This document shows, piece by piece, positions 64 to 6,238 of a stretch of DNA of 6,238 nt; the stretch's first letter is position 1, and each line of letters opens with the position of its first letter. This DNA is from Anaerolineae bacterium (lineage in GTDB: Bacteria; Chloroflexota; Anaerolineae; B4-G1; SLSP01), in contig JAFGSL010000180.1 of the NCBI GenBank assembly GCA_016934645.1, positions 1 through 6,238 of the forward strand. Direction: 5' to 3'. Position numbers and translations under genes: made by a program. Under the pieces are notes generated by a model that saw only the letters and a list, made by a program, of their open reading frames with translations, ran no database searches and was not told the DNA's origin.

Positions 64-999
64 CTACAAAGTGCGGAATACAAGTTTCAGTGAGTTTTCG
101 TTGAGGACAATGAGCACTCCGACAATCACGGGCGCGACCAGCACGGAGATCGGGCTGACGAATAACAAAAGCAGAATTCCACCGCCTAAAATGGCAAACA
201 CCGAAAGACCGGTACCGCCCGAAAAACGGAAGAAGAGCACAGCAAACATAATCATCACAACTGCACCTAGAATAAAGCGCGCAGTGGGATTGTCCGTCAG
301 CCATTTGTTGACCAACTGCACGAACGTCATCTTGATCACGCGCGTCATACCACGCTGCGGGAAAGAGACACCGACCCGATAAGCCTGCGTCGCGGGTTCC
401 TGTGTCTGCCACACAGCAACAGCGCGTCCCTGGTAGAGCGCCTTGTTGGTAAAGGGAACGTCCTGATACAACATTTCATCCGGTTGGATACCTTCCAGCA
501 TGTGGATGGCGATCTGGATGTTCGATGTGCCGCGCACGAAGTCACTGGAAAACCAGGTCGGCGTAATCTGCAACGAGGCGAGTTCTTTGTTGGTCGTATC
601 CTGGAAGACCAGGTCGGGCATGCTGAACTCGAAGTGCAGCGTGCCGCTCGATCCTCGTGGAATGGCCTGGCCACTTAGGTGGACTTCGACACCAGGATTC
701 ACGTATTCGGATTTGCGGATGTCGCTCAGGTTGACGCCGTTAATCGAAGCGCTCATCGTGCTGATGTTGTAGTTGCTGTGCGGCATGCCGATGTCCACGA
801 TATCGATGGGGCTGCCGTAGTTTTCGAATGTGATGTCGTAGACGATCTTCACCGAGGCGTCCGGCTGTACGTAGACCTGCATCTTTAGATCCGGCACACC
901 AAAGCTGTAATTCTGGGCCGCCACTGGCCCTCCGAAGGACGTCAACACCAGTAATAACGTCAGCAAAACTAACGCCCGAAATATACGTTTGCTTTTCAT
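64..999 (-). CDS. Secreted/membrane paralogue of DUF2207-like protein, short form (311 aa)
   Basis: Function unknown. The protein starts with a clear signal peptide: basic MKSKR, a leucine-rich core at about residues 9-22, and a likely cleavage after VAA (residue 28) just before QNYSF. Residues 29-230 form an extracytoplasmic, probably beta-rich domain. It is collinear and roughly two-thirds identical by eye to the same region of the 585-aa protein upstream, sharing stretches such as YDITFENYGS, DIRKSEYVNPGVEVHL, ASLQITPTWF and RVGVSFPQRG. After residue 240 the two diverge. This one has about three hydrophobic segments (roughly 242-258, 264-281, 283-299) and ends with a short basic tail, with no cytoplasmic domain and no Cys-Ala tail. 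The ATG at 999 has a GGAGG eight bases upstream (1008-1012), and the stop is TAG. It lies 85 bp behind its paralogue and probably shares its transcript. It is best seen as a diverged tandem duplicate, perhaps a partner or competitor in the membrane. The DUF2207 link is by resemblance only. Confidence 0.85.
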   Translation of the reverse strand: MKSKRIFRALVLLTLLLVLTSFGGPVAAQNYSFGVPDLKMQVYVQPDASVKIVYDITFENYGSPIDIVDIGMPHSNYNISTMSASINGVNLSDIRKSEYVNPGVEVHLSGQAIPRGSSGTLHFEFSMPDLVFQDTTNKELASLQITPTWFSSDFVRGTSNIQIAIHMLEGIQPDEMLYQDVPFTNKALYQGRAVAVWQTQEPATQAYRVGVSFPQRGMTRVIKMTFVQLVNKWLTDNPTARFILGAVVMIMFAVLFFRFSGGTGLSVFAILGGGILLLLFVSPISVLVAPVIVGVLIVLNENSLKLVFRTL

Positions 1000-1084: not shown

Positions 1085-2842
1085 TCACCGTCCACCACCC
1101 GCGCAGGCACACGCGCAGGCGCATCCAGCGCAAGCACAGGCACAACTGCTGTGAAAACTCCCGCCCGATGAAGACGAATGCGTGACCGGCGTGGGTTTTT
1201 GCAACGACGTCGGCATGATTGCGGCAGCCATACCGCCCATCGTCGTTTCGGCCCAGCCCGCGAAGGAGGAAGCCACATCGCCGAACTTCGGGGCAGGACG
1301 CCCACTGGCGGCAGCGCTCCCCCCGCTCTTTATCCCCCCCACCGGCGGGGACGTCAGGGGGGGACGTGTCCCGCGCGCCCAAAGCGGCCAGTAGTTGTAA
1401 GTGCCGACGGTCATCACCCTCCGGTAGTCCTTGTCGAGCATCACCCACGGCGCATACTTGTCGAGATATTGCTCACGCTGCTGGATATCGCCGAACGCAG
1501 AGGCTTGCTCCATCGCCCGTTCAATAACACGGCGATAATAGTCCTGGGTATCCGAGAGATCGAACCCCTGCATCTTGGCGGCGGCGATTTTCACCAGGTC
1601 CTCCATCGGCTTGACAACCTTGAGTTGCTTCACCGGCTTGTCAGGGTTCTCCTGGATCAGGTCCAGGAAAGCATCCTCGTAGTTATGGATCACGGTTCCC
1701 TGCCGCTGTGCAACGGAGCGGCGAAACTTCGCGCGCGCATCAGCATCCTCCAGATCGGTGCGGTAGGCATCCTCAATTTCCACCGTCAAAGCTTCGGTGA
1801 GCGAGCCGGTTCCATCCGCTTTCCGCACCAGTCCCTTCTCGAGCAAACCAAAGATGACGAGTGCCAGCACCTTGTTCAGCGGCATTTCCAGGATAATGGC
1901 GGCCTCAGGCGCGGTCAGCCCACGCTTGATCCCGCCACCCTCAACTTGAGCGATAGGCGGCAAGTAATTCGGCTTGCTGGCCTTCTTAATGGCCCTAACG
2001 ATCACCCAGAAAATGAAGATGGGGAAAACAAGCGGCAGACAGCCACCAACGATCCCGCCAATGACACCCGCGAACTGCCCGAACCACTGCATAAAGAGAT
2101 CCCACGTGGTCACTTCAGTGACATTGGTGAGGCCGCGCTGCGGGAAAGAGACACCCACGCGATATTCTTTCGTCGCCGCGACGTTCTCGAAGCGCCACAC
2201 CGTGACCACGCGCCCGTTCTCGGTGCCCTTGTCGGTAAAGGCGACATCCTGGTACAATACCTCGTCCAACTGAATGCCCTCGAGCATGGTGATGCGGATC
2301 TCGATCGTTCCCGTCCCGCGCGTCGAACTGCTATCGAACCACGTGGGCGTGATTTGCAACGAGGCATTCTCCTTGTTCGTGGTATCGGTAAAAATCATCT
2401 CCGGCATCGTCATCTCGAAGTGAAGCGTGCCTTTTCCACCCGATGGAATGGCCTTGCCATCGAGATGCACTTCCACGCCGGGATTGACATACTCGGATTT
2501 GCGAATATCGGTCAGCGCCACCCCATCAATGGAGGCGCTCATATTACTGATGCTATAGCCGCTGTGCGGCGTCCCGATGTCTACAATATCGATGGCGCTT
2601 CCATAGTTCTCGAAAGTGATGTCGTAAATGATCTTCGCGGAACTGTCCGGCTGGACAAAGACCTGCATCAGCATCTCCGGCACAGCGAAACTGTAGTTCT
2701 GGGCATACGCTGGCCCACCGGGGGACACAGCGAGCATTAGCAGTACCAGCAAGGCCAGTGCGTGACGCAACGGTGCGTGACGCAGCGGTGCGTGACGCAC
2801 CAATGCGTGACGCACCAGTGTGTGACGATGTTTCCGTTTCAT
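1085..2842 (-). CDS. DUF2207-like membrane protein with C-terminal Cys-Ala tail (585 aa)
   Basis: Biochemical function unknown. Layout: an unusually long basic n-region of RHxxx repeats (residues 6-27), a hydrophobic core (28-39) and probable signal peptidase cleavage after AYA (residue 47); an extracytoplasmic domain (48-255) matching the short paralogue downstream; one membrane segment (about 257-284) followed by the basic RAIKKASK; then a cytoplasmic part. That part has a conserved-looking helical stretch YLPPIAQVEGGGIKRGL...APEAAIILE...GLLEKGLV (about 293-340), a charged helical region (about 350-475), a low-complexity Pro/Gly linker (about 490-520), a Ser-rich spacer, and a tail with seven Cys alternating with Ala before GGGR. 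The YLPP/KRGLTAPEAA segment reminds me of the C-terminal half of DUF2207 proteins. Type I topology would put the tail in the cytoplasm. The ATG at 2842 is chosen because GGAGGTG sits five bases upstream and the next gene stops two bases away, giving translational coupling. The open frame continues to a TTG at 2890, which is unlikely to be used. Confidence 0.85.
   Translation of the reverse strand: MKRKHRHTLVRHALVRHAPLRHAPLRHALALLVLLMLAVSPGGPAYAQNYSFAVPEMLMQVFVQPDSSAKIIYDITFENYGSAIDIVDIGTPHSGYSISNMSASIDGVALTDIRKSEYVNPGVEVHLDGKAIPSGGKGTLHFEMTMPEMIFTDTTNKENASLQITPTWFDSSSTRGTGTIEIRITMLEGIQLDEVLYQDVAFTDKGTENGRVVTVWRFENVAATKEYRVGVSFPQRGLTNVTEVTTWDLFMQWFGQFAGVIGGIVGGCLPLVFPIFIFWVIVRAIKKASKPNYLPPIAQVEGGGIKRGLTAPEAAIILEMPLNKVLALVIFGLLEKGLVRKADGTGSLTEALTVEIEDAYRTDLEDADARAKFRRSVAQRQGTVIHNYEDAFLDLIQENPDKPVKQLKVVKPMEDLVKIAAAKMQGFDLSDTQDYYRRVIERAMEQASAFGDIQQREQYLDKYAPWVMLDKDYRRVMTVGTYNYWPLWARGTRPPLTSPPVGGIKSGGSAAASGRPAPKFGDVASSFAGWAETTMGGMAAAIMPTSLQKPTPVTHSSSSGGSFHSSCACACAGCACACACAGGGR
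1088..1144 (-). other. Alternating Cys-Ala C-terminal tail, possible modification or metal site
   Basis: The last 19 codons encode three Cys-Ala pairs, a glycine, four more Cys-Ala pairs, then GGGR. Counting from the ATG at 2842, the cysteines are residues 567, 569, 571, 574, 576, 578 and 580. Codons vary (TGC and TGT for Cys; GCC, GCT and GCG for Ala), so the pattern is kept at protein level and is not a simple microsatellite. A Ser/Gly-rich spacer precedes it. Such a core-like, cysteine-dense tail next to a PqqD/SPASM protein suggests a target for thiol-based modification or iron-sulfur or metal binding. Alternatively it is a low-complexity tail analogous to the glycine-rich ends of related membrane proteins. 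Confidence 0.8.
1319..1363. repeat. In-frame C/G-tract palindromic insert in the coding sequence
   Basis: A run of six C (1319-1324), a run of seven C (1334-1340) and a run of seven G (1357-1363) stand close together inside the 585-aa gene. C7 and G7 can pair around a 16-nt loop. The codons (about residues 494-508, reading PPLTSPPVGGIKSGG) form a Pro/Gly linker unlike the helical sequence before it. The composition resembles intergenic palindromic repeats that can be tolerated inside genes when in frame. Identity with a known repeat family was not tested. Confidence 0.5.
2760..2834. repeat. 15-bp tandem repeat, about 4.5 copies, in signal peptide n-region
   Basis: On the plus strand the units are GCGTGACGCAACGGT, GCGTGACGCAGCGGT, GCGTGACGCACCAAT and GCGTGACGCACCAGT, followed by a decayed copy beginning GTGTGACG. 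Fifteen bases equals five codons, so copy-number change keeps the frame. On the minus strand each unit encodes RH followed by A/T, L/P and V/L. The array extends the positively charged start of the signal peptide of the 585-aa protein, and the short paralogue lacks it. It looks like recent slippage expansion. Confidence 0.85.
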
Positions 2843-2844
2843 TC

Positions 2845-4143
2845 TCACACCTCCGACATCTGCGCCCACCCCGCCGGTTCGCGGGGACAATCGGCGGCGC
2901 AGATTGCTAACCCGGGACAGCGATCGCAGTGCGTCGGCGCTTCGACGCGCTCGCGGTATCTACGGAAAACCTCGTGATTCCAGATATCGCTCCACGCCAT
3001 GGCGAGCAGATTGCCCGCGCTCTTGTACTGACCGCGAGGTGGAATAACACTGCCATCCGGTTCGACGCGCACGGCCACATCGCCGGAGCAACGCGGGCCG
3101 TCTTGCACTTGCTCGGCCAGGGAATGCGCTGGATCGCGTTGCACGGGTGGATCCCAGATAAAGCGTGCCGACATCTCATGTGCGGCTTCCTCGACCATTG
3201 TGGCAACCTGGGGCATAGCGTCGGCAGCAAAGATTCCATCCCGTTCGGCGAGCGCCTCGTCGGTGGTGACATAGGCAACGAAGGCGATGTTGTCGGCGCC
3301 CTGCGCCATCAACGTGTGAACCGTGGTGTTGAGCGCATACAACGTCGCCTGGACGAGTGGCAGTTCCGCAACGGCGCACAGTTGGTTCTCTTCCAGCCAT
3401 GCCAACAACGCGATCGCAGCGGTGTGGTCGCCGTCGCCGCATAACGCGTCGTGGACGGCAGGATCGTCGGAGGCGTAGATGAAGGTGACGTGATCCACAC
3501 CCGCCTGGAGCACAGCCGTCAACAGCTCAGTGTTCCACAAATCACTGGCACGCCCGCGCACCCCGGCAATCATCCCCAGGTCCTCGGCCCGCTCGATAGC
3601 ACGAACAAGGTATGTGGCGTCAGGATCGCGTGGCGCGAGGAGGGTCACGTGCGGAATGCCTGCATCCCATAATTTGTCGATGATCGGCAGCAGCTTCTCC
3701 GGTTCAGCCAGTGGCAGGGAGGCTTGCAACGGGGCAATTAGTTCCGCACTGTAGGGCGAGAGGGCGGCATCGTCGAGATTGAAAACCGGATACATATCCT
3801 CCGGCGCGATGATTTGGGCGATAAGCCCTTCCACTTTAGCGATATCCGCTCGCATCACATCCTCGGTGGCCCCACGGAAATTGGCGACAAGTTCCTGGAG
3901 AACCACATCCGCACTCTTGCCGTCAAGCAAGCCCTTGACGATGAGGACGCCGGTCGGCGAAAGGCGTACGGCGGCAGCGGCGTTGGCGATCAACATCCCC
4001 GAGCCATCGCGCTCCACCCGCAAGTGAAAGCGTGTGATCATACCCTCGGCTTCCTTCATCACGTGATAGATTCCAGGAGAGACCGGCGGTGGGGGAGCAG
4101 CGCGTTTGACGCTAAACAGATTTTTGAGCCATTCGATTGCCAT
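2845..4143 (-). CDS. PqqD-like / radical-SAM-like / SPASM protein lacking the radical SAM cysteines
   Basis: Probable cytoplasmic peptide- or protein-maturation factor, catalytic status doubtful. Residues about 35-112 look like a PqqD-type recognition domain (RFHLRVERDGSG, LSPTGVLIVKGLLDGKS, then helices to LIAQIIAP). Residues about 115-330 follow a radical SAM barrel pattern (LLPIIDKLWDAGIPHVTLLAPRDP, LGMIAGVRGRASDLW, LQAGVDHVTFIYASDDPAVHDAL, GADNIAFVAYV). The expected CX3CX2C is missing, since the matching stretch LDDAALSPYSAEL has no cysteine, and the usual GGEP is LAPRDP. The C-terminus is SPASM-like: C352 and G364, then Pro at 369 where the family GX4C cysteine is expected, then a perfect C406-X2-C409-X5-C415-X3-C419. 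No further cysteine follows. The ATG at 4143 has AGGAGGT four bases upstream (4148-4154). The gene ends two bases before the Cys-Ala tail protein, which makes that protein the obvious candidate partner. Family calls rest on motif recognition. A non-catalytic scaffold that delivers a tail to another enzyme is as likely as an active enzyme. Confidence 0.75.
   Translation of the reverse strand: MAIEWLKNLFSVKRAAPPPPVSPGIYHVMKEAEGMITRFHLRVERDGSGMLIANAAAAVRLSPTGVLIVKGLLDGKSADVVLQELVANFRGATEDVMRADIAKVEGLIAQIIAPEDMYPVFNLDDAALSPYSAELIAPLQASLPLAEPEKLLPIIDKLWDAGIPHVTLLAPRDPDATYLVRAIERAEDLGMIAGVRGRASDLWNTELLTAVLQAGVDHVTFIYASDDPAVHDALCGDGDHTAAIALLAWLEENQLCAVAELPLVQATLYALNTTVHTLMAQGADNIAFVAYVTTDEALAERDGIFAADAMPQVATMVEEAAHEMSARFIWDPPVQRDPAHSLAEQVQDGPRCSGDVAVRVEPDGSVIPPRGQYKSAGNLLAMAWSDIWNHEVFRRYRERVEAPTHCDRCPGLAICAADCPREPAGWAQMSEV
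2848..2854 (-). promoter_or_regulatory. Shine-Dalgarno GGAGGTG embedded in the end of the SPASM gene
   Basis: On the minus strand the reading is GGAGGTG, TGA, GA, ATG. The SD is formed by the Glu-Val codons just before the TGA stop of the 432-aa gene, and the ATG at 2842 follows five bases after the SD. This decides the start of the 585-aa protein and makes coupled translation of the two very likely. Confidence 0.8.
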
Positions 4144-4261: not shown

Positions 4262-4963
4262 TTATCTCTTACGATACTTACGGTCGTAGAGGGTGTCGTC
4301 GTAGGGAGCGCGGCGGCCAGGACAGTTTTCACGCGGACAGAGTTGGCAACTGGTGAAATCGTCGCGCCAATCTTGGCGTCCCGTCGCAAAGCGCAGTCCT
4401 GACACGGTTTTGTTCGGCGTCATCAGAAAGCTATCCGAGAGTTCTACCCCGATGGCGCCTTTGACGTCGCCAAGGATAGTGAAGAGCGGGCGCTGCTGCG
4501 GCAGCGGCCAATCGGCGAGTGATCCGGGCGACATTGCCGCCATTTTCCCCAGCCCATACTGCTCCGTCATTTGTACATTCAGTGTCTGAACGGCCTCGCG
4601 TAACGCCATCTCCTTGATAAGATCGGCCCAATACTGGTAAAGCATATCCTCCTGCGCGTGCGCCCAGGCATCCAGCTCCACGCCGCACGTCACAACGTAG
4701 GGGAACACGCGATAGACAGGTTCCAGGTTCACGCTCAGCACCCGGCTGGTAAACTTCATGCCATCGATGACAACCGTATCGTCATCCCTGGCATCGATAA
4801 AAGCAACCTTGTAGAGCGCCTTAGGCCGGGCAAGCTCCTGAGCCTCATCCGCCAGACGCTGCACATCGCCAACATAGGGACTGCCTTCCTTGATGCGCAA
4901 ACGACTCAACAGCACTGCTCGATCCGGTTGAAAGGGGATAGCATCAATGATGGTATTACACAT
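4262..4963 (-). CDS. Vitamin B12-dependent methionine synthase activation domain-like protein (233 aa)
   Basis: It resembles the stand-alone form of the MetH reactivation domain, which in that family binds SAM for reductive methylation of the inactive cobalamin. Evidence: the central helical region with AHAQEDMLYQYWADLIKEMALREAV (about 101-124), then MSPGSLADWPLPQQRPLF (144-161), corresponding to the family's Pro-Gly SAM-binding segment, and GVELSDSFLMTPNKTVSGLRFA (about 172-193), matching the conserved 'Lt.s..M.P..SvSG' motif. The end carries CQLCPRENC (C206, C209, C214) followed by basic residues, a possible iron-sulfur or metal site absent from the classical MetH domain. The ATG at 4963 overlaps the kinase TAA as TAATG. 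The upstream 56 in-frame codons lie inside the kinase gene and look non-conserved, so this start is preferred; only a weak GGGGG serves as SD, consistent with reinitiation. No methionine synthase catalytic gene is in view, so its corrinoid partner may be encoded elsewhere, or it may serve another corrinoid protein. Confidence 0.72.
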   Translation of the reverse strand: MCNTIIDAIPFQPDRAVLLSRLRIKEGSPYVGDVQRLADEAQELARPKALYKVAFIDARDDDTVVIDGMKFTSRVLSVNLEPVYRVFPYVVTCGVELDAWAHAQEDMLYQYWADLIKEMALREAVQTLNVQMTEQYGLGKMAAMSPGSLADWPLPQQRPLFTILGDVKGAIGVELSDSFLMTPNKTVSGLRFATGRQDWRDDFTSCQLCPRENCPGRRAPYDDTLYDRKYRKR

Positions 4964-6238
4964 TAGAAGCCCCCAAACTCTTGGAGCGCACCGATCAGCA
5001 CAAGCAGCAGTGTCAAACCTATGGTTAGCAGGCATAGCGCCAGCCCAGCCCAGGCCAGTCCCCGCTGCTTCTTCGAGCGGATGCCCAGGATGCTCACCAC
5101 AACGCCGATCAACGGCAAGGGCAGGTTGCAAAGGGGAACAATAACCATACTACCCAGGCCAATAATGCCCAAGATAAACGCGGCGATCGAAGCAGCAGAT
5201 CTTTCCTGCCGAAGTCTAGGCTGCGGTGGTAAGCGCTGCGGCACTTGCTGCATTTGTGACGGCACCGCCTGTTGCATTCGTTGAGGGTGAGGCGGCGCCG
5301 GTGGCTTGGTTATGGGAACAGAATGCGCACGCGAAGGCGGCGCAGTTCTCTGCGACCGAGGTAACGGCGGAGGCGAGCCGGCAGGAGAACGTTGGTCGGC
5401 ATAGTGCGGCACAGATGTATATAACGAACCGGTACCTAAAACGCTCGCCATTTCCCGTGCGCTCTGAAAACGGTCGATGGGCCGCAGCTCAAGCGCGCGC
5501 ATCAACGCCGCTTCTATGGCAGGATCGACGTCGGGGTTCAGCGCCCGCGCAGGGATCAGAGCCGCCGGATTGACGATGCGTTTGGTCGCTGTGGGCGGAG
5601 CTTGGCCCGCCAGCGCATGGTAAAGCGTCGCGCCGAGGCTGTAGATGTCGCTGCGAACATCGGTGGATCCGGATTCCGTCTCGTATTGCTCCGGCGGCGC
5701 ATATTCTGGCGTGCCCATCCCGCGCACCACCGTCATCGTGCGGGGATCGCGCGGATCCCACAGCTTCACCAGGCCAAAATCCACCAACACCGCCTGCCCA
5801 TCGGGGCGAATGACAATGTTGGTAGGTTTGATATCGCGATGGAGCACATTCTGCCCGTGACAATAGGCCAACGCGTCGAGCAACTGCTGTGCCCAACTCA
5901 GCACCAGTGGCAACGGCAGCGCGCCCTCATTCCCGATGCGGTCGGCCAGACTTTCCCCCTCGACCAGTTCCATCACCAGGTAAGCATTGCCGCCCTCCTC
6001 GAAAGAGTCGAGGACGCGCACCAGATTGTTGTGACTGAGCCGCGCCAGCGTCATCGCCTCACGCTTGAACTGCGCGCGCAGTTGTGCCAGCATTTCCGGG
6101 TCGAGATCGGCCTGCGCCGTCAACTCCTTGATGGCGACGGGGATTTCTAGACTCAGGTGCCAGGCGGCGTAGACCGCGCCCATGCCACCCCTGCCGAGCA
6201 AGTGCGTGATGCGATAGCGATTTTGTTGGAGGATGGTC
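4963..6238 (-). CDS. Membrane-anchored Ser/Thr protein kinase with DUF4190-like tail (5' end outside window)
   Basis: Hanks-type kinase, expected to phosphorylate Ser/Thr on cytoplasmic proteins. The frame is open to the window edge. The first visible codons read TILQQNRYRITHLLGRGGMGAVY, the usual N-terminal pattern of bacterial kinases, so only a few codons are probably missing. Counting the Leu codon at 6201 as residue 1: glycine loop GRGGMG (3-8), K25 in VAIK, helix-C Glu48, HRDIKPTN with catalytic D123 and N128, DFG 141-143, GTPEYAPPEQY (163-173), and DVRSDIYSLG (181-190). All catalytic residues are present. A Pro/Gln-rich linker (about 270-335) leads to a DUF4190-like double membrane segment (AASIAAFILGIIGLGS to GVVVSILGI, then RGLAWAGLALCLLTIGL). 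No PASTA sensor repeats are present and almost nothing is extracytoplasmic, so it may sense partners in the cytoplasm or membrane. The stop overlaps the next ATG by one base, which links its expression to the B12-related protein. Confidence 0.93.
   Translation of the reverse strand, partial: TILQQNRYRITHLLGRGGMGAVYAAWHLSLEIPVAIKELTAQADLDPEMLAQLRAQFKREAMTLARLSHNNLVRVLDSFEEGGNAYLVMELVEGESLADRIGNEGALPLPLVLSWAQQLLDALAYCHGQNVLHRDIKPTNIVIRPDGQAVLVDFGLVKLWDPRDPRTMTVVRGMGTPEYAPPEQYETESGSTDVRSDIYSLGATLYHALAGQAPPTATKRIVNPAALIPARALNPDVDPAIEAALMRALELRPIDRFQSAREMASVLGTGSLYTSVPHYADQRSPAGSPPPLPRSQRTAPPSRAHSVPITKPPAPPHPQRMQQAVPSQMQQVPQRLPPQPRLRQERSAASIAAFILGIIGLGSMVIVPLCNLPLPLIGVVVSILGIRSKKQRGLAWAGLALCLLTIGLTLLLVLIGALQEFGGF

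What the first reader, a model, noticed from the sequence alone, without database searches (positions are those of the whole stretch)
1085..4143. Possible tail-modification cassette: PqqD/SPASM protein coupled to a Cys-Ala-tailed membrane protein
Seen: a 432-aa protein with a PqqD-like N-terminus and SPASM cysteines is translationally coupled to a membrane protein whose last 19 residues contain seven alternating Cys. Known: PqqD-like domains are RiPP recognition elements, and SPASM proteins mature peptides, often at or near cysteines. Inference: the neighbour's cytoplasmic tail is the substrate or client, so a ribosomally made, modified tail would be carried on a full-length membrane protein and not on a small precursor peptide. 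A passive metal-binding tail is the main alternative.
Basis: partly seen in the sequence, partly recalled or inferred. Interest (0 to 1): 0.78.

Follow-up and report, generated by a model that had tools for sequence, protein, structure and literature searches.

The report
Cysteine-tailed membrane protein with radical-SAM maturase
A bacterial membrane protein ends in a strictly conserved Cys-Ala tail that is nearly always accompanied, from Chloroflexota to Asgard archaea, by its own radical-SAM enzyme family, which suggests that the tail of a full-size protein is chemically remodelled.

Summary

The window's PqqD/SPASM protein has a fold like RiPP maturases (SkfB, SuiB) but has lost the radical-SAM motif CX3CX2C, so it should not be the radical enzyme. 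In the two closest genomes the same operon holds a canonical PqqD-rSAM-SPASM enzyme just upstream of the kinase, outside the window. All 12 sampled genomes with the pseudo-enzyme also carry a canonical one.

The tail is under amino-acid selection: 103 identical tails are written in 87 DNA sequences. In three genome samples the Cys-Ala carrier occurs with clade-A rSAM in 39/39, 22/23 and 14/14 genomes. A second tail made of CHSA repeats, on related membrane proteins, occurs with a separate clade-B rSAM in 33/33 and 17/19. Tail type and enzyme clade keep company across bacteria and Asgard archaea, sometimes unlinked. One kinase carries the same tail next to a clade-A enzyme.

Best reading: a dedicated rSAM system modifies the Cys tail of full-length proteins; the window's protein is its catalytically dead partner. 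Modification was not observed and its chemistry is a guess.

The parts
2845..4143 (-). PqqD(RRE-like)-pseudo-rSAM-SPASM protein, 432 aa; rSAM CX3CX2C lost, Cys 352/406/409/415/419 kept; proposed non-catalytic partner
   Evidence: AF2 pLDDT 82.5; Foldseek and VIA kin SuiB and SkfB
1085..2842 (-). Tailed membrane protein, 585 aa: signal peptide, beta ectodomain (52-234), TM region about 246-289, helical domain (311-467), pre-tail helix (521-542), Ser/Gly linker, Cys-Ala tail
   Evidence: homologues
1085..1144 (-). DNA encoding the C-terminal CACACAGCACACACAGGGR tail plus stop codon
1208..1288 (-). Conserved pre-tail helix region (residues about 519-545), candidate leader-like recognition element (inferred); the corresponding segment is also on a tailed kinase
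   Evidence: mean identity to window 0.84 for the block that holds it; helix 521-542
64..999 (-). Paralogue of the tailed protein: ectodomain and TM stretches but no helical domain and no Cys tail
4262..4963 (-). Operon companion with a weak match to the B12-dependent methionine synthase activation domain (22.5 bits, below cut-off 25) and a C-terminal Cys cluster; found in 4 of the 12 pseudo-rSAM genomes
4963..6237 (-). Ser/Thr protein kinase, cut by the contig end; in L180 and L181 the canonical rSAM gene lies immediately upstream of it

Best explanation
A dedicated PqqD-rSAM-SPASM enzyme modifies the Cys-rich C-terminal tail of a full-length, membrane-anchored protein in the cytosol. The carrier exports its ectodomain, crosses the membrane, and presents a conserved helix, a flexible linker and a Cys-Ala core at its extreme C-terminus. 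The helix would serve as the leader bound by the RRE; the core would be the substrate. In the window's lineage the canonical rSAM lies upstream of the kinase, and the window's SPASM protein is a pseudo-rSAM partner that binds the tail or the enzyme, much as TrnD assists TrnC. Shown: tail conservation, co-occurrence, pairing of tail type with enzyme clade, loss of the rSAM motif, predicted fold, exact C-terminal position. Inferred: that modification occurs, cytosolic placement of the tail, the leader role of the helix, the partner role. Guessed: Cys thioethers to neighbouring residues as the product.
For: Of the 9 other genomes, 8 hold a canonical-type enzyme at 389.9 bits or more and the ninth only a pseudo-paralogue. 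Genome samples: CA carrier with clade A 39/39, 22/23 and 14/14; CHSA carrier with clade B 33/33 and 17/19. Cross pairs (CHSA with A, CA with B) coincide in 1 of 298 and 0 of 119 genomes. In the 298-genome sample the tail was read in 37 of the 39 CA genomes and in 20 of the 33 CHSA genomes, never absent where read. 103 identical tails use 87 DNA sequences; entropy 1.37 bits at third, 0.05 at first codon positions. All 12 pseudo-rSAM genomes carry a C(N/T)NxCxHC rSAM, 7 of them upstream on the same contig. Enzyme and carrier lie apart yet co-occur in G001, G005, G119, G192, G342 and G363. The same tail sits on a 1139-aa kinase beside a clade-A rSAM.
Against: No modification was observed. Ten of 85 clade-A genomes showed no tail carrier, and a tail-module query found none in those ten; that query missed two other genomes known to hold a carrier (G334, G409), so it is not very sensitive, and incomplete MAGs may explain some cases but not surely all. 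Two CHSA genomes and one CA genome lacked the matching rSAM. Related genomes are not independent, so the Fisher p-values overstate. The window's own contig does not reach a canonical rSAM. No further same-strand neighbour (such as a protease or exporter) recurred in more than 7 of 119 tiles. Topology is not proven.
Confidence: 0.7

Rival explanations
1. The tail is an unmodified, metallothionein-like metal or Fe-S binding element, and the SPASM/rSAM proteins receive or use its metal rather than modify it.
For: Alternating CxC and Cys/His-rich CHSA repeats look like ligands; the modelled tail is disordered; rSAM enzymes themselves need Fe-S clusters (general knowledge).
Against: Passive metal tails should turn up without the enzyme; carriers did not in 39/39, 33/33 and 14/14 genomes. 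Strict Cys-Ala order and the exact C-terminal GGGR go beyond what metal binding needs. RRE domains typically bind substrate peptides (general knowledge).
Confidence: 0.15
2. The tail is a recognition handle or regulatory arm that docks the SPASM proteins at the membrane; another residue or protein is the true substrate.
For: The window's partner is a dead enzyme; a kinase and a small membrane protein with a weak zinc-ribbon match are neighbours.
Against: A docking peptide need not hold 6-13 Cys in fixed order; two different Cys alphabets each have their own enzyme clade.
Confidence: 0.1
3. The window's PqqD/SPASM protein itself modifies the tail by non-radical or unknown chemistry.
For: It is directly upstream of the tail gene with a two-base gap; its Cys 406, 409, 415 and 419 are invariant; genomes with it carry a shifted tail register, 13 of 14 tails read with four Cys-Ala after the Gly, whereas all 24 other class tails read have three.
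Against: CX3CX2C is in 0 of 120 sequences (window and listed relatives); a canonical enzyme is co-resident in 12 of 12 genomes.
Confidence: 0.05

Closest known systems
RiPP rSAM/SPASM maturases SkfB, SuiB, CteB (the name CteB for 5why is recalled)
   Different: Those act on small precursor peptides; here the recurrent partner is a membrane protein of about 500-700 aa, and the window member lacks the rSAM cluster motif
Thuricin CD pair TrnC/TrnD (PMC12093266, abstract and outline seen)
   Same: Two rSAM proteins act as one complex, with the radical activity of only one strictly essential
   Different: Both Trn proteins are active rSAM enzymes on small peptides; the window partner has lost the motif altogether
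His-Xaa-Ser (Hxs) and TVG systems (PMC9062424, passages seen)
   Same: rSAM enzymes paired with repeated motifs; in TvgA the change lies in the C-terminal repeats
   Different: HxsC scores 70.4 and 70.8 of 267.9 for two canonical enzymes; motifs are not Cys-Ala
GeoRSP system (NCBIfam TIGR04303/TIGR04304)
   Same: Pairs a radical SAM/SPASM protein with a SPASM protein (model names only)
   Different: Scores 20.4 of 400 and 14.4 of 300 for the window protein
DUF2207-type membrane proteins
   Same: One partial CHSA-group relative was named DUF2207 domain-containing by its source; similar plan of ectodomain, TM, cytosolic part (DUF2207 plan recalled)
   Different: No Pfam family reached E 1 for the window protein

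Membership tests
Radical SAM enzymes (window protein) | CX3CX2C cluster motif in the barrel | tested here: not met
   0 of 120 sequences (window included) hold CX3CX2C anywhere; no such Cys columns
Radical SAM enzymes (window protein) | rSAM barrel fold | tested here: met
   AF2 model matches viperin, SkfB, SuiB, PqqE over the barrel; Pfam sequence score below cut-off
RRE-rSAM-SPASM RiPP maturases (canonical neighbours) | PqqD/RRE + CX3CX2C + SPASM in one protein | tested here: met
   L002 and L012 proteins: Radical_SAM 89.9 and 85.7, SPASM 38.1 and 39, above cut-offs; PqqD 20.4 (below 23.4) and 25.4 (above); motif
RRE-rSAM-SPASM RiPP maturases | small precursor peptide gene nearby | not tested
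   ORFs under 60 aa were not surveyed in the neighbourhoods; clusters used 80 aa or more
RRE-rSAM-SPASM RiPP maturases | conserved protease or exporter neighbour | tested here: not met
   among ORFs of 80 aa or more in 119 tiles, only the enzymes, the carrier and a small protein (59 loci) recur on the same strand in more than 7 loci; two opposite-strand clusters (18 and 14 loci) were not identified
Sactipeptide/ranthipeptide systems | Cys thioether crosslinks in product | not testable with these tools
   needs mass spectrometry
GeoRSP, HxsC, PqqE NCBIfam equivalogs | curated score cut-off | tested here: not met
   window: PqqE 24.7 of 381.35, GeoRSP_rSAM 20.4 of 400; canonical L002: PqqE 112.4 of 381.35, GeoRSP_rSAM 89.4 of 400, HxsC 70.4 of 267.9

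The most novel reading that the evidence does not exclude
An ancient, widespread class of protein modification: dedicated rSAM clades rewrite portable C-terminal Cys tails (Cys-Ala or Cys-His-Ser-Ala) on full-length membrane and signalling proteins in bacteria and Asgard archaea, producing a protein-borne crosslinked or metal-holding element, in some lineages with the help of catalytically dead rSAM partners.
Probability: 0.55. Interest if true: 0.92.

Novelty: new variant of a known kind. Interest (0 to 1): 0.82.

Why it matters
Radical-SAM/SPASM maturases are known mostly from small peptides. A system that marks the end of a resident membrane protein, with one enzyme clade per tail alphabet and spread over two domains of life, would move RiPP-type chemistry into core cell biology, including the archaea closest to eukaryotes. 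It is directly testable: the substrates, the residues and the partner enzymes are named here, and named Anaerolineae strains (Ornatilinea apprima, Bellilinea caldifistulae, Levilinea saccharolytica, Leptolinea sp. HRD-7) are among the hits.

Tried and rejected
Rfam on the window: 0 matches. The motif as printed text: 0 papers for three Cys-Ala strings. One search (two CHSA strings and two shorter strings) returned 535 papers; in the 20 listed the CHSA strings occurred 0 times and the hits came from the short strings, by their titles most likely DNA; the other 515 were not inspected. DUF2207 with radical SAM: 0 papers. Searches showed no paper describing the system, judged by titles and abstract starts of the rows listed; several listed only part of their hits, subscription journals are mostly missing, and Haft and Basu 2011 is not held. 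One further paper was looked into by passages without use here (PMC8939145). A cytochrome c reading of CHSACH was dropped because the tail is probably cytosolic: 4 to 7 Lys/Arg follow the strongest TM stretch in the five carriers scanned. But the same scan flags a second stretch at 316-334 in the window carrier and 333-351 in L116 (not in L002, L012 or L203), and AF2 splits the window's TM region into two helices, so topology is unproven. The window's ectodomain resembles ribophorin I and M1-aminopeptidase N-domains, which did not help with function.

Rows dropped and choices: P0237 was left out of the conservation alignment. Score thresholds separating clades (368 against 296 bits, 303 against 254, 295 against 218) were chosen after seeing the gaps; second hits of 292-296 bits in G295, G304 and G313 belong to genomes already counted. 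The clade-B count of 34 uses hits of 157-270 bits read by hand, including a partial hit (G137); pseudo-paralogue scores overlap that range and were told apart by the query range (ending near 412 instead of 445) and by their place beside clade-A genes. CHSA carriers were counted at 176 bits or more for the best hit of a genome (in one search the lowest counted is 285, the next 59). In one search the CHSA line mixed in seven Cys-Ala tails; the corrected figures quoted are my subtraction. Confidence in the best explanation was lowered from 0.72 to 0.70 because the topology evidence proved weaker on rereading.
Full report
What is in the window. On the minus strand lie, in transcription order, a Ser/Thr kinase (cut by the contig end), a short protein with a weak methionine-synthase-activation match, the PqqD/SPASM protein (2845-4143), the tailed membrane protein (1085-2842) and a tail-less paralogue (64-999). 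The tail gene starts two bases after the SPASM stop, behind a GGAGG. No whole genome is held for the window.

The tail. The protein ends in CACACAGCACACACAGGGR. Among 120 listed homologues (of 1109 found) 98 share this end, 20 have a form with six Cys, one has a Cys-to-Gly change (P0128) and one is disrupted (P0237). In the alignment of the window with 119 of these the last 17 residues are 99-100% identical while the linker before them varies. The pattern fixed three Cys after the Gly, so it picked the sister register CACACACAGCACACAGGGR and could not find the window's own register. In 117 of 119 tiles the ORF was long enough to list, and all 117 end in GGGR. 103 identical tails are encoded by 87 distinct DNA sequences, with third-position entropy of 1.37 bits and first-position 0.05. 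Some loci come from the same genomes, so the 103 are not all independent. This is selection on the protein, not a DNA repeat.

The enzyme family. An HMM built from the window protein and 119 listed relatives found a family ORF (E 1e-3) in 110 of the 119 tiles. Most of the strongest members there, unlike the window's, carry an rSAM motif such as CNNDCAHC; a second paralogue without the motif often follows. For the nine tiles without a family ORF, eight genomes hold a canonical-type enzyme at 389.9 bits or more and the ninth (G004) only a pseudo-paralogue at 130 bits. Recurrent same-strand neighbours are the enzymes, the tail protein, and a small membrane protein found in 59 loci whose scanned example has a weak zinc-ribbon match below cut-off.

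Co-occurrence. In the 298 genomes, clade-A rSAM (368 bits or more; next 296) is in 43 and the tail carrier (E 1e-15) in 39, all within the 43. In 119 genomes of the phylum of L012 (titled Heimdallarchaeota), clade-A rSAM is in 26 and the carrier in 23, 22 shared; in the exception, G334, the carrier gene is cut by a contig end. In 99 genomes of the phylum of an Aminicenantes MAG, 16 and 14, all 14 shared. Carriers were found by homology; the tail itself was read in 37 of the 39 class genomes (24, 3) and in 16 of 16 archaeal carrier loci not cut by a contig end. Fisher p-values are 1e-44, 6e-19 and 3e-15, but relatedness makes them too small. Against the reading, 4, 4 and 2 clade-A genomes show no carrier, and a 90-residue tail-module query found none in those ten. 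The query also missed G334 and G409, which do hold carriers, so it proves little.

A second alphabet. Among the weaker rSAM hits (157-270 bits) a sister clade appeared, with CQNRCxFC-like motifs in bacteria and CNNKCRFC-like in archaea. Four of five bacterial loci read had a distantly related membrane protein next to it whose tail is built of CHSA repeats (L202, L203, L204, L206); in L201 it was not nearby, but that genome (G078) has it on other contigs. In the 298 genomes the CHSA carrier is in 33 and all 33 hold clade B (34 genomes). In the archaeal sample it is in 19, of which 17 hold clade B (18 genomes). CHSA tails were read in 16 of 16 further bacterial hits, chosen from the 33, and in 7 of the 10 archaeal clade-B regions fetched. 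The two pairings barely mix: CHSA with clade A, or CA with clade B, in one genome of 298 (G295, which has both systems) and none of 119. In an 82-row tree, clade B is one side of a branch at 100, the window-type pseudo-enzymes at 100, and the other pseudo-paralogues at 94 (quick method, SH-aLRT only). In both alphabets Cys is usually preceded by Ala: 125 of 173 in 24 CA tails, and by my subtraction of seven misfiled tails 185 of 196 in 16 CHSA tails.

Unlinked and transplanted tails. In G001, G005, G119, G192, G342 and G363 enzyme and carrier lie on different contigs, with no carrier in the stretch read around the enzyme or no enzyme around the carrier, yet they co-occur (for G119 contig positions only). 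In G067 a 1139-aa kinase-ATPase protein ends in the conserved pre-tail helix, linker and CACACACAGCACACAGGGR, beside a clade-A enzyme; its last 150 or so residues align with the end of the L002 carrier at 42% identity, and the same genome has the membrane version on another contig. This single case suggests that the C-terminal part is a portable substrate module. All 178 tail proteins in hand, the kinase included, match the membrane-carrier references at E 1e-3, so the tail was not seen on a wholly unrelated C-terminus.

Carrier anatomy. The model of the carrier is only fair (mean pLDDT 71.4): signal peptide, a confident beta ectodomain, TM region, helical domain, a helix at 521-542 and a disordered tail. 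Positive residues after the main TM stretch suggest that the tail is cytosolic, which suits cytosolic enzymes, but a second hydrophobic stretch in the window carrier leaves this open.

Mechanism. I take the tail to be the substrate. The RRE binds the pre-tail helix, the canonical enzyme makes the radical, the pseudo-enzyme helps. A precedent for shared labour is TrnC/TrnD in thuricin CD, where the radical activity of only one partner is strictly essential (PMC12093266, abstract). A repeated C-terminal motif modified by an rSAM/SPASM enzyme is known from TvgA (PMC9062424, passages). Thioether formation is my guess from the chemistry of relatives, not a result.

Novelty. No Pfam or NCBIfam family covers the carriers I scanned: the window's and six others had no match or only matches below cut-off. 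The window enzyme meets no NCBIfam cut-off in any of 13 matches; for the canonical enzymes the rows shown (best 25 of 72 and of 81) are all below cut-off. My paper searches found no description within the limits told under Tried and rejected.

Noticed in passing
L210:990-4409: Kinase-ATPase protein of 1139 aa with the same Cys-Ala tail beside a clade-A rSAM.
   Followed up: partly
P0254: Kinase-TM protein whose outer part resembles the CHSA carrier's ectodomain, hinting at a functional link between the window's kinase and the carriers.
   Followed up: no
L014:2065-3747, L021:2807-4432, L066:380-2119, L096:1132-2751: Canonical rSAM enzymes with a C-terminal extension that holds further Cys (such as GGGGCSGCSGSCGTG in L014).
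   Followed up: no
L246:8907-9284 and similar: Small membrane protein with C-terminal CxxC pairs, recurrent beside the system in Chloroflexota, other bacteria and some archaeal loci.
   Followed up: partly
window 64-999: Paralogue with the ectodomain but without helical domain and tail.
   Followed up: partly
window 2757-2830: Short imperfect repeats encode an RHA(L/P)-type N-terminal run in the tail protein.
   Followed up: no
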